Shown piece after piece: positions 49,071 to 53,029 of a DNA stretch of 64,000 nt. Origin of the DNA: Fusobacterium ulcerans (GTDB lineage Bacteria; Fusobacteriota; Fusobacteriia; Fusobacteriales; Fusobacteriaceae). Positions within the stretch are counted from its first letter, which is position 1. Each line of letters begins with the position of its first letter. Location of the stretch: positions 512,282 through 576,281 of the forward strand of contig NZ_CP028105.1 of assembly GCF_003019675.1 (NCBI RefSeq), in the 5' to 3' direction. Position numbers and translations under genes: made by a program. The notes under the pieces are model-generated. The model saw only the letters and a list, made by a program, of their open reading frames with translations, ran no database searches and was not told the origin of the DNA.

Positions 49071-49976
49071 TTATTTTATAATTTTAATTTTACATTCATC
49101 TTTATCCTTTGAATTATCATATCCATATTCACATCTATAATCTTTTTTTCTAAAAATTTCATCCTTTCTTTTATAGTAATACTTTTCATTTAAACTAATT
49201 TTTTTAGTTATATCTTCTCCATGATACATATGAACTAAAATATTCTTATAGTTTAATGGAATTACTTTTAATCCATAACAATAAATTCTATTACATAAAT
49301 CATCATCCTCATATCCCCACCCTATATAATTCTCATCAAATCCATTGAGTTCAATAAGATTTTTTTTAAATATACCTATTCCTAACCCTATTATTTTAGC
49401 TCCCCTTTTAGCAAGATTTAAATTATATAATAAATTTTTAATTATATCCTTTTTATATTTTTTCTCTATTATTTTTTTTTCATCTTTAGTTATATATTTT
49501 TCTATTATTTTATAATCAAATTTTTTTTGCCTACCTAGCTCTGTTTTTATTTTTTCTGTTTCTTTTTCATTTAAAGAAATAGCATCCATTTTTATTACTA
49601 TTCCTTCTTTAATAACTTCTTTTATATTTTTTATAAAAAAATTATCAAATAATATATCCTGATCTAAAAATAATAAAAATTCTCCCTCTGAAAACTTAAT
49701 TGCATTATTTCTTGATCTAGATAATCTAAAACCAATATCTTGCTGATAAACATGTTTCAATCTATATGAAATTTGAGGAATAATTTTTTCAATAACCTTT
49801 TCTAAATTTTCAGAAGATCCATCATCTGCAATTATCACTTCAAAGGGTTTTTCAATTTGAGATTCCAAAGCTAATAAAATATTTTTCAAATATTCTAATC
49901 TATTGTAAACTGCTACTATGACAGATATTTTCATTCTTGTCCTTGTATGATAAAAGCGTAGTAAATTATTTATCAT
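49071..49976 (-). CDS. GT2-family glycosyltransferase
   Basis: 301 residues. MKISVIVAVYNRLEYLKNIL, IIADDGSSENLEKVI, LSRSRNNAIKFSEGEFLLFL with the DQD metal site, and GWGYEDDDLCNRIY near the C-terminus (galactosyltransferase-like GT2_7 tail). Two starts are possible: 49976 with a perfect AAGGAGG but short spacing, or 49934, which begins at the conserved MKISV and has AAGGA. It is a paralogue of the 52175 gene. An IS110 element lies immediately upstream. Confidence 0.87.
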   Translation of the reverse strand: MINNLLRFYHTRTRMKISVIVAVYNRLEYLKNILLALESQIEKPFEVIIADDGSSENLEKVIEKIIPQISYRLKHVYQQDIGFRLSRSRNNAIKFSEGEFLLFLDQDILFDNFFIKNIKEVIKEGIVIKMDAISLNEKETEKIKTELGRQKKFDYKIIEKYITKDEKKIIEKKYKKDIIKNLLYNLNLAKRGAKIIGLGIGIFKKNLIELNGFDENYIGWGYEDDDLCNRIYCYGLKVIPLNYKNILVHMYHGEDITKKISLNEKYYYKRKDEIFRKKDYRCEYGYDNSKDKDECKIKIIK

Positions 49977-50005
49977 ACATCCTCCTTCTTTAATTCATTT
50001 TGGTA

Positions 50006-50203
50006 TATAATTAATTATTGAAACTGTGGACTTTTTACTTTTGCCTAAAGATTCTTTTGAATACTTTTACTAGGAGATTATTGCCACTGTTTTTTCTCAA
50101 ACACTTATAGTTGGTTAAAATTCTTTTGATTTTTTATGTTTGCAAGGATGTGTTGATTAAAACTTTGTGGATGCGCAGTTTCTTATCTCTTTTAAAGGAT
50201 GTG
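50006..50203 (+). ncRNA. Candidate bridge-RNA region at the left end of the IS110 element
   Basis: IS110-group elements encode a bridge RNA in the noncoding end before the recombinase gene; it guides target and donor recognition. Here ~195 noncoding bases follow a TATAAT (50006-50011). I could not fold the two-loop structure by eye, so this is positional inference only. Confidence 0.3.
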
Positions 50204-51379
50204 ATGTTTATGTTATTGTTAGGTATTGATATCGCTAAATTAAATCATGTGGCTTCTCTTGTTGATTCTGATTCTGGGGAACTTATTTTTTCTAATTTTA
50301 AATTCCAGAATAATATGCCTGGATTCCTCTCCCTTTATGAAAAAATTGTAGATTTTCCAATTAAAGACATTATTATTGGTTTAGAATCAACTGCCCATTA
50401 TGGAGAAAATTTTATTAATTTTTTCTTTCAAAAAGGATTTAAAATTGCTGTAATCAACCCTTTACAAACTTCACATTTACGTAAAGCTAATATTAGAGAT
50501 ACTAAAAATGATCATTTAGACTCTATTACTGTTGCTAAAGCTTTACTTTTTGATAATTTCAAATTTGTTTCTCAAAACAATGTTTCTAATTTTGCGCTAA
50601 AAAAACTTACTCGTTTTAGAAAAAGTCTAGTTAAACAAAGATCTAGAAGTAAAATTCAGCTTGTTTCTTTACTAGATATTATTTTTCCTGAACTACAATA
50701 TGTTTTTAAAGCTGGTATCCATACTAAGGCTCTTTATGCCCTTCTTAAGAAATATCCTTCTACAGAAAAAATAGCTGCTTTAAGAGAAAAATCATTATTT
50801 TCTATTTTAAGCAAAGCTTCTAAAGGCCATTATGACATGGCAAATGCTTTACTTTTAAAAAGTCATGCTAAATCTTCTGTAGGTGTCAAGGATACATCTA
50901 TATCTATACATATCCCTCAATTAATTGAATTAATTGAGCTGTTAGATAAGCAAATTAAATCAATAGAAGAAGAAATTGAAGCTTCTCTTGATAATGGATC
51001 ACCAATTCTTTCTATTCCAGGAATTAGTAATGTTGCAGCTGCCAGCATAATTGGAGAAATTAATGATATTTCTAATTTTGATTCCCCATCTAAATTACTT
51101 GCATATGCAGGACTTGATCCTAAGATAAGGCAGTCAGGAAATTTCAATGCTTCTTCATGTAGGATGTCTAAAAAAGGGTCTCCATATTTGCGCTATGCTT
51201 TAATTTACACTGCTTGGAATTTAGTAAGAAACAGCAAAATATTTAAAGACTATTATTTAATTAAAAGAGCACAGGGAAAATCTCATTACAATGCTTTAGG
51301 GCATGTTGCGCACAAATTGGTGAGAGTGATTTATGCTTTATTTAAGAAAAATTTAATCTATCAAGAATTTCAACTCTAA
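50204..51379 (+). CDS. IS110-family transposase (DEDD recombinase)
   Basis: 391 residues. The N-terminal RuvC-like DEDD domain shows LLLGIDIAKLNH, IIGLESTAHYG and TKNDHLDSITVAKAL. The C-terminal Transposase_20 domain has SIPGISNVAAASIIGEI and SSCRMSKKGSPYLRYAL, which holds the conserved Ser region. AAAGGA lies before the ATGs at 50204 and 50210; either may be used. The frame stays open further upstream, but that is the noncoding left end. It looks intact and possibly active. Confidence 0.9.
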   Translation: MFMLLLGIDIAKLNHVASLVDSDSGELIFSNFKFQNNMPGFLSLYEKIVDFPIKDIIIGLESTAHYGENFINFFFQKGFKIAVINPLQTSHLRKANIRDTKNDHLDSITVAKALLFDNFKFVSQNNVSNFALKKLTRFRKSLVKQRSRSKIQLVSLLDIIFPELQYVFKAGIHTKALYALLKKYPSTEKIAALREKSLFSILSKASKGHYDMANALLLKSHAKSSVGVKDTSISIHIPQLIELIELLDKQIKSIEEEIEASLDNGSPILSIPGISNVAAASIIGEINDISNFDSPSKLLAYAGLDPKIRQSGNFNASSCRMSKKGSPYLRYALIYTAWNLVRNSKIFKDYYLIKRAQGKSHYNALGHVAHKLVRVIYALFKKNLIYQEFQL

Positions 51380-51489
51380 CATTCTTAGATTAAAAATATT
51401 TTAAAGAGTTTTCAAACTCTAATTTTGTAATGCAGAAATATTAAGATGAAATTTATTTATTTTTATCTTGACTTTTCATAGTTGGTCTC

Positions 51490-52164
51490 CTACAATTTCT
51501 TTAGTTTTTTTACAGCTAAAGCAATATAATAATATATATTTTTTGAATATGGATATTTCATATTAGAATATGAGTCTAATTGCATCGTAAGCATATCATA
51601 ATGAGCCCTATAATTTCCTAATATCATCTTTTTCATTTTACTGTCTATTATTTTTACTTCTTTATTTTTTTTCTCTTCAATAAAATTATATGGATTACAA
51701 TCTCCATGATATCTCTTAATAAAGTGTAATTTTTTTACTACTTCTATAGCCTTATCTTTAAGAAAATCCTCTTCGCATACTCTTCCTTCTACTTTTTCCA
51801 TAATTACAAAGGATTTTTTTAAAACTCTAAATTTTCTTTTTTCAATAATACCAATTATTTTGGCAAAATTATTAAATCCTTCTTCCCTTACCTTTATACT
51901 ATTCTTTAAAATTTGGACTCCATCGCTATTTAAAAATATTTTTTTAATAATATAAAAAAATTTTTTATATTCATTTTTATTATCTTTTAATATATAGTTT
52001 TGATTGTCAACAACTATATCTGCAACATAATTTCTTTCACTATTTTTAAATTCTTTTTTTATTTTAAATTCCTCTTTAGAAATTTTTTCTAATATTTTTA
52101 ATTTTTTTTCATCTATATAGTAAAAGTCAAAATCATTATTTTTTACTTTAAATATTTTTTTCAT
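51490..52164 (-). CDS. LPS core kinase (RfaY/WaaP-like)
   Basis: 224 residues from the ATG at 52164, with AAAGGAAAAA upstream; the longer start at 52200 lies inside the preceding gene. Kinase-like features: NYILKDNKNEYKKFF with a candidate ATP-binding Lys, SFVIMEKVEGRVCEED, catalytic loop RYHGDCNPYNFI and metal motif VKIIDSK. Probably phosphorylates a core sugar. The stop codon is about 17 bases from the proposed right end of the IS110 element, so the insertion seems to have spared it. Confidence 0.78.
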   Translation of the reverse strand: MKKIFKVKNNDFDFYYIDEKKLKILEKISKEEFKIKKEFKNSERNYVADIVVDNQNYILKDNKNEYKKFFYIIKKIFLNSDGVQILKNSIKVREEGFNNFAKIIGIIEKRKFRVLKKSFVIMEKVEGRVCEEDFLKDKAIEVVKKLHFIKRYHGDCNPYNFIEEKKNKEVKIIDSKMKKMILGNYRAHYDMLTMQLDSYSNMKYPYSKNIYYYIALAVKKLKKL

Positions 52165-52174
52165 TTTTTCCTTT

Positions 52175-53029
52175 CTAAATTTCTTCAAAATAATATCCAT
52201 CTAAATCTTTTCTATTTTCTATTCCATAAGTACATTTATAATTTCCTTTTATAATTTTTTCTTTTTTTTCACTGTATATTTTCTTATTCTGATTTCCTGT
52301 CTTAGTGGGATCTAATGGATGGCACATATGAATTGATGGTATTTTTGTAGAAAATGTTACTGATTTTAACCCTAAAGCATAAAGTCTCAAACCTAAATCA
52401 GCATCTTCTCCTCCCCATCCTTTATAGTCTTCATCATATCCATTTATTTCTATATAGTCTTTTTTAAACAGAGCAAATCCAATTCCCATAAGACCTGTGC
52501 CTCTATCTCTTAATCCTATTTTATATCTAAAGTTATTATATTTATCTCTCCAAAGATATTTTTTCAATACTTTAAAATGACTGAATGAAACTTTTGATAT
52601 TACTTCCTCATATCTCCATTTGTTCTTCACTAATGTTTTCTGAATATCTATTCTTTCATCATTTTCAGACCATATTACTCTAAGAATAGAAAATTTATTT
52701 TCTTTTTTATTTTGTATAAAAGTTTCAATTAGATTATTAGGAAAAATAGCATCTTGATCTAGAAAAATTAAATAATCTCCTTTGCTTTCTATAACTGCGT
52801 TATTACAAGCTTTTGATTTCCGAAACCCTAAATCTTCTTGATAAATATATTTTATCTTAAACTCACATTTATCTTTGTATTTTTTCAATATTTCTTTCAA
52901 GTCCTCTTTTGACCCATCATCTGTAAAAATCACTTCATAAGGTTGAACACTCTGTTTTATCAAACACTTCAGTATATTTTCTACATATTCAAATCTGTTA
53001 TATACAGTTATTATCAATGATATTTTCAT
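52175..53029 (-). CDS. GT2-family glycosyltransferase with galactosyltransferase-like tail
   Basis: 284 residues from the ATG at 53029 (AAAGGTG upstream); a longer in-frame start is not supported. MKISLIITVYNRFEYVENIL, VIFTDDGSKEDLKEIL, GFRKSKACNNAVIESKGDYL plus a DQD site, and the C-terminal GYDEDYKGWGGEDADLGLRL typical of GT2_7 domains. Same architecture as 49071. It has its own extended -10 promoter. Confidence 0.88.
   Translation of the reverse strand: MKISLIITVYNRFEYVENILKCLIKQSVQPYEVIFTDDGSKEDLKEILKKYKDKCEFKIKYIYQEDLGFRKSKACNNAVIESKGDYLIFLDQDAIFPNNLIETFIQNKKENKFSILRVIWSENDERIDIQKTLVKNKWRYEEVISKVSFSHFKVLKKYLWRDKYNNFRYKIGLRDRGTGLMGIGFALFKKDYIEINGYDEDYKGWGGEDADLGLRLYALGLKSVTFSTKIPSIHMCHPLDPTKTGNQNKKIYSEKKEKIIKGNYKCTYGIENRKDLDGYYFEEI

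What the first reader, a model, noticed from the sequence alone, without database searches (positions are those of the whole stretch)
49988..51473. IS110-family element inside the LPS cluster with a possible bridge RNA and circle-junction promoter
The transposase looks intact, and ~200 noncoding bases precede it. If the ends are the CT dinucleotides at 49988 and 51472, circularisation would join TTGACT of the right end to TATAAT of the left end at 16-nt spacing, the reported way such elements drive their bridge RNA. Insertion is just behind the ribosome binding site of a GT2 gene, so it could also alter that gene's expression.
Basis: partly seen in the sequence, partly recalled or inferred. 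Interest (0 to 1): 0.55.

Follow-up and report, generated by a model that had tools for sequence, protein, structure and literature searches.

The report
Jumping gene aimed at ribosome-binding sites
An intact IS110-type jumping gene sits in a sugar-coat gene cluster; its real ends differ from those first proposed, and sequence comparison suggests that it uses a small guide RNA to insert itself into the ribosome-binding signals in front of genes.

Summary
The finding is a real, probably active IS110-group insertion sequence, but its ends were misplaced. Three identical copies in the same genome, homologues in other genomes and an empty site in a relative put the core CT at 49942-49943 and 51487-51488, not 49988 and 51472; the element with one core is 1545 bp. 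With these ends the circle junction carries TTGACT-17 nt-TATGAT, and the 17-nt spacing holds in 10 of 10 elements compared. A left-end RNA of about 165 nt (about 50018-50185) is supported by a closing stem found in 12 of 12 sequences; it carries words that match the element's ends (AUAGUUGGU, GCAAG) and the right side of the targets (UAGGAG). The target is the Shine-Dalgarno sequence of genes on the opposite strand: 25 of 31 left junctions of this lineage have an ATG frame 5-14 nt away, against 4.5% of background AG positions. At the window site the element split the Shine-Dalgarno sequence of a GT2 gene and left AAGGA in front of it. IS900 of Mycobacterium is a published precedent for this address, so this is a new member of a known kind. 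Transcription, circle formation and RNA binding were not testable.

The parts
49942..51486 (+). IS110-group element with one copy of the core CT (1545 bp)
   Evidence: three identical genomic copies, empty site in G008, conserved outer ends in homologues
49942..49943 (+). left core CT
51487..51488 (+). right core CT; bases from 51489 (CCTACAA) are target
51468..51473 (+). TTGACT, -35 of the promoter formed at the circle junction
   Evidence: spacing 17 in 10 of 10 elements
49946..49951 (+). TATGAT, -10 of the circle-junction promoter
   Evidence: spacing 17 in 10 of 10 elements
49945..49980 (.). left-end inverted repeat TGTATGATAAA/TTTATCATACA, part of the element
   Evidence: read; nowhere else in the genome at up to 3 mismatches; related in G006 and G036/G037 homologues
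   Evidence: no conserved -35
50018..50185 (+). predicted bridge-type RNA, limits approximate
   Evidence: closing stem 50020-50028 with 50174-50182, present in 12 of 12 sequences
50037..50046 (+). candidate left target guide ACUUUUGC-CU; weak match to own targets
   Evidence: 3, 3 and 1 of 7 matches in the three own copies
50071..50076 (+). right target guide UAGGAG, complement of CT-CCTA
   Evidence: pairs with the right target of 3 of 3 own copies
50107..50115 (+). left donor guide AUAGUUGGU, identical to the 9 bases before the right core
   Evidence: 11 of 1000 shuffles reach 9
50142..50146 (+). candidate right donor guide GCAAG, complement of CTTGT with one G-T
   Evidence: conserved in 9 of the 10 rows of alignment A2, not in G042
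50210..51379 (+). transposase, 389 aa; D7, E59, D101, D104, S309
49071..49934 (-). GT2 gene whose Shine-Dalgarno sequence is split by the element
51490..52200 (-). WaaY-like gene upstream of GT2; its TAG stop remains intact beside the right end

Best explanation
This is an intact IS110-group insertion sequence of 1545 bp (49942-51486). It leaves as a circle joined at one CT; the joint makes a promoter (TTGACT-17-TATGAT) that reads the left-end RNA and the transposase. One loop of the RNA pairs with the element's own ends. The other, mainly through the right guide UAGGAG, pairs with Shine-Dalgarno sequences (CT-CCTA on the top strand), so that the element goes in just upstream of start codons with its transposase antisense to the gene. 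At the window site it split TAGG-AG-GACAAGAATG of a GT2 gene. Shown by sequence: copies, ends, empty site, position of targets, matches between RNA words and ends or targets. Inferred: circle, promoter activity, existence of the RNA, its pairing and its role in targeting.
For: Three identical copies and shared limits; uninterrupted MerR site in G008 and G010 and uninterrupted paralogues of the coding-sequence site; IS110 domains, NCBIfam equivalog and IS621/ISCro4 similarity; junction spacing 17 in 10 of 10 elements; closing stem in 12 of 12 sequences; 25 of 31 left junctions 5-14 nt from an ATG frame of at least 40 aa against 162 of 3569 background AG positions; guides fit own targets better than permuted guides (24 copies: left p 0.0008, right 0 of 20000).
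Against: The RNA does not fold better than shuffles on its own and Rfam has no match. The consensus fold pairs the guides with each other. The left target guide fits the three own targets poorly (3, 3, 1 of 7). Within a clade own guides are only a little better than those of other lineages (4.63 v 3.99 left, own mean over all 24; 4.33 v 3.68 right), so the permutation p largely reflects the difference between two clades. Left and right donor matches are not found at the expected place in G006, G082 and G083 by the simple test. One of three own copies is in a coding stretch, not at a start. No empty counterpart of the window site itself was found.
Confidence: 0.85

Rival explanations
1. One reading: ends at 49988 and 51472, with TTGACT-16-TATAAT at the joint; the shared flanks would then be a 60-70 bp repeat that the element uses as target.
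For: TTGACT and TATAAT are really there and would stand 16 nt apart; all three copies have the same immediate flanks.
Against: The flanking hairpin piece is not found without the element in this genome; the empty MerR site lacks it; homologues in other genera carry the same outer pieces beside unrelated flanks.
Confidence: 0.02
2. Targeting of Shine-Dalgarno sites is not RNA-guided: the transposase itself or accessibility of start regions chooses AGGAG-like DNA, and the words in the left end resemble the targets by common composition.
For: The left guide is weak and AT-rich; within-clade specificity is modest; no RNA was measured.
Against: Right guide and right target change together (UAGGAG with CCTA, UAAGGAG with CCTTA, AAAGGAG with CCTTT); IS110 relatives are shown to be RNA-guided (PMC11208160).
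Confidence: 0.1
3. The RNA is mainly made from an internal promoter with the TATAAT at 50006-50011 in the integrated element, and the circle joint matters little.
For: The box lies 8 nt ahead of the closing stem and TATAT (50004-50008) is invariant in the nine rows of A1.
Against: No conserved -35; in this AT-rich stretch the promoter scan finds no more sites than shuffles (9 against 11.5); the junction boxes are closer to consensus and keep their spacing in 10 of 10 elements.
Confidence: 0.3

Closest known systems
IS621 and the IS110 group with bridge RNA (PMC11208160; abstract, outline, sections 5, 6, 7, 12 and passages seen)
   Same: DEDD plus serine transposase, long left noncoding end with an RNA, CT core, junction promoter, guides to donor and target
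   Different: about 30% or less protein similarity by phmmer alignment; RNA here closed by one long-range stem; target is a Shine-Dalgarno sequence instead of REP elements; right target guide does most of the work in the window's clade
IS900 of Mycobacterium avium subsp. paratuberculosis (PMC8141618; passages seen; Doran 1997 seen only as a title in its reference list)
   Same: IS110-family element whose target CATGNNNNNNTCTCCTT is a Shine-Dalgarno sequence plus start codon on the opposite strand
   Different: IS900 has the opposite-strand frame hed over its length; here only 8 codons follow the right-end ATG; no RNA analysis of IS900 was seen
ISEc11 / ISEc21 seekRNA elements (PMC11187229; passages and section 13 seen)
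   Same: noncoding-region RNA sets the target, circle joint makes a promoter, no target duplication, recorded ends are often wrong
   Different: IS1111 types carry subterminal inverted repeats; here the longest inverted match between the outer 60 bases is 7 and AT-rich

Membership tests
IS110 family | DEDD RuvC-like domain (PF01548) and C-terminal domain with serine (PF02371) | tested here: met
   (residue roles recalled from IS621)
IS110 family | no target duplication, scarless join at a short core | tested here: met
   single CT at the empty MerR site; paralogues of the coding-sequence site agree
IS110 group (not IS1111) | left noncoding end longer than right; no 7-17 bp subterminal inverted repeats | tested here: met
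   266 against 107 bases from the ends and the transposase frame; longest inverted match 7, AT-rich
bridge-RNA system | structured left-end RNA | tested here: inconclusive
   closing stem in 12 of 12 sequences, but no excess folding energy; no transcript data
bridge-RNA system | loop complementary to the donor ends | tested here: met
   9-base match in the window element; weaker in relatives and not seen in G006, G082, G083 by that test
bridge-RNA system | loop complementary to the target | tested here: inconclusive
   right guide fits (4, 4 and 5 of 6), left guide poorly (3, 3 and 1 of 7) in own copies
bridge-RNA system | promoter re-formed at the circle junction | tested here: met
   sequence only: TTGACT-17-TATGAT, spacing kept in 10 of 10 elements
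bridge-RNA system | circle formation, RNA binding, guided recombination | not testable with these tools
   needs experiments
IS900-like address | insertion at Shine-Dalgarno plus start codon in one orientation | tested here: met
   25 of 31 left junctions against 4.5% background; one own copy is in a coding stretch
IS900-like address | long opposite-strand frame hed | tested here: not met
   only 8 codons after the right-end ATG

The most novel reading that the evidence does not exclude
A lineage-wide strategy: the RNAs of this IS110 lineage carry Shine-Dalgarno or anti-Shine-Dalgarno words as target guides, so that a signal nearly every gene needs becomes the insertion address. Two clades use different registers (CT-CCTA or CT-CCTTA against TTCCTC-CT). 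The left end rebuilds an AAG beside the gene, and in the window's clade the right end offers an ATG 7 nt from the stranded half of the signal, so that both neighbours stay translatable: selection for abundant but nearly harmless sites.
Probability: 0.35. Interest if true: 0.6.

Novelty: new member of a known kind. Interest (0 to 1): 0.42.

Why it matters
It gives exact ends, core, guides and empty sites for an IS110 lineage, so that circle, RNA and retargeting can be tested directly. It also offers an RNA-guide reason for the older observation that IS900 lands on translation starts; in the listing (25 of 151 papers from 2024 on, those with more terms first) no listed paper held IS900 together with bridge RNA or seekRNA.

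Tried and rejected
A right core at 51490-51491, which I considered first: rejected because the empty site keeps CTCCTA and the junction spacing would be 20 instead of 17. Rfam: only one chance match below threshold. Folding the RNA alone: uninformative. The MAFFT alignment shifts the 3' stem between rows, so the closing stem was tested by script. Plasmid and phage collections: no match. An opposite-strand gene like IS900 hed: 8 codons only, rejected. The genome contigs protein scan gave three relatives of about 30% identity, not used further. A frame from the element into GT2 (14 added residues) is probably chance: by reading, the MerR copy meets a stop in the same frame.

Full report
What is there. 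The transposase frame 50210-51379 (389 aa) is intact. It matches PF01548 and PF02371, the NCBIfam equivalog for IS110 RNA-guided transposases and the solved IS621 and ISCro4 transposases. D7, E59, D101, D104 and S309 stand where the IS621 residues are expected (residue roles recalled). The seven neighbouring proteins scanned are a group 1 glycosyltransferase, an O-antigen ligase, two GT2 proteins, a WaaY-like protein, LicD and a hexapeptide transferase, so LPS or surface-polysaccharide cluster is a fair label.

Ends. The genome holds three copies that are 100% identical. The left extra piece occurs nowhere else in the genome at up to 3 mismatches. Homologues with 66% to 38% protein identity in other genera of the phylum have the same kind of outer ends beside unrelated flanks. 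The copy in front of a MerR-like gene (label by reading) has an uninterrupted counterpart in G008: the left flank, 151 of 160 identical, ends at base 1641 and the right flank starts at base 1640. That leaves a single CT and fixes the right core at 51487-51488. G010 also has the intact AGGAGG site there. The copy at 3.447 Mb lies in a coding stretch reading ATAGG-AG-CAGTAG; 15 of the 30 loci listed read ATAGGAGCAGT without the element (counted by eye). For the window site no uninterrupted relative was found; its former sequence TAGGAGGACAAGAATG is deduced.

Circle junction. With these ends the circle reads TTGACT-tttcatagttggtcttg-TATGAT, spacing 17. TTGAC[TA]-17-TAT[GA]AT is found in 10 of 10 elements for which I had both ends (G000, G006, G036, G037a, G075, G078, G058, G060, G082, G083; for G006 the right end comes from two other contig ends). 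The bases TATAT at 50004-50008 are invariant in nine aligned left ends, but no -35 goes with them; a second start there is possible, not shown.

RNA. Alone, 50018-50205 folds no better than shuffles. Across 12 sequences from eight lineages, the first 17 and last 20 bases of the region pair in every one: mean score 19.75 against 14.8 for 122 cross-lineage pairings; shuffle fraction 0.033 or less in 11 of 12, 0.06 in G006. The RNAalifold consensus of seven sequences shows the closing stem and a second stem CCAC/GUGG, with 4 of 31 pairs changed on both sides, but also pairs the guides with each other. AUAGUUGGU in the RNA equals the 9 bases before the right core; 11 of 1000 shuffles reach 9. The shared word is 8 in G036 and G037a and 7 in G075, G078, G058 and G060 (where 96 to 246 of 1000 shuffles reach it); in G006, G082 and G083 the longest shared word is not at the guide.

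Target. On the gene strand the core AG sits in a Shine-Dalgarno sequence. Of 31 left junctions, 25 have an ATG frame of at least 40 aa that starts 5-14 nt from the core, against 162 of 3569 AG positions in the same flanks. The six without are L061, L062, L065, L069, L066 and L059; one of the 25 (L034) is inside a coding sequence. Not counted: elements of which I had only a right end (L042, L045, L048, L053, L057, L030, L037, L039, L060), and L064, L067 and L070, whose left end my motif did not find. The right guide follows the target: UAGGAG with CT-CCTA in 3 of 3 own copies; UAAGGAG with CT-CCTTA in both G036 copies and in L058; AAAGGAG with CT-CCTTT in 4 of 4 G075 copies. L041 and the G078 copy depart by one base; of the two G006 right ends one reads CCTTTT and the other CCATTG. 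In G058 the left guide UUCCUCCU equals the left target in 3 of 3 copies. Permuting guides among types gives 0.0008 (left) and 0 of 20000 (right), largely because the two clades differ.

Effect at the window site. The WaaY-like gene keeps its TAG stop, and GT2 keeps its ATG with ACAAGGACAAGAATG in place of TAGGAGGACAAGAATG. The left end also brings AAGGAGG-ATGT-ATG, from which a frame runs into GT2 with a 14-residue extension. Expression effects are untested.

Known or new. Bridge RNA and junction promoters are established for IS110 and for seekRNA elements. IS900 has the target CATGNNNNNNTCTCCTT, and the title of Doran 1997 says that it targets translation initiation signals. Searches for IS110 with Shine-Dalgarno, IS110 family with ribosome binding site, IS110 with Fusobacterium and bridge RNA, seekRNA or IS900 from 2024 on showed no description of this lineage or of guide-directed Shine-Dalgarno targeting in the listings seen; most subscription papers are not held.

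Noticed in passing
L127, L129, L132, L135 (G001, G007, G010 and G000:C1:3433554): GGAGACCAACTATGAAAA, which equals the element's right end plus the stranded half of the Shine-Dalgarno sequence, also stands at the start of unrelated genes in genomes without this element nearby. In 12 genomes the 14-mer CATAGTTGGTCTCC occurs exactly 6 times outside the three own copies (two of them true G006 ends), against 10 times for all 42 one-mismatch neighbours. Relics of right ends or a favoured start region; unexplained.
   Followed up: partly
L015 (G008:C1:2023070): A left end with the same TGTATGAT and hairpin region stands in front of a reading frame without a transposase behind it: a probable remnant of a related element.
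   Followed up: no
window 49934-49987, minus strand: The left end supplies AAGGAGG-ATGT-ATG and an open frame that adds 14 residues to the GT2 protein.
   Followed up: partly
window 51395-51420: AGAGTTTTCAAACTCTAATTTTG hairpin behind the transposase stop, with a near copy in the G036/G037 homologues; the terminator scan did not report it.
   Followed up: no
L034 / G000:C1:3446.7-3448.2 kb: The third copy interrupts the signal-peptide-like start of one member of a large paralogous surface-protein family.
   Followed up: partly
G037 copies L041, L051, L055, L058: Four related copies in one genome carry stop codons in the transposase (1 to 2 each), a decayed population beside intact ones in G036.
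   Followed up: no
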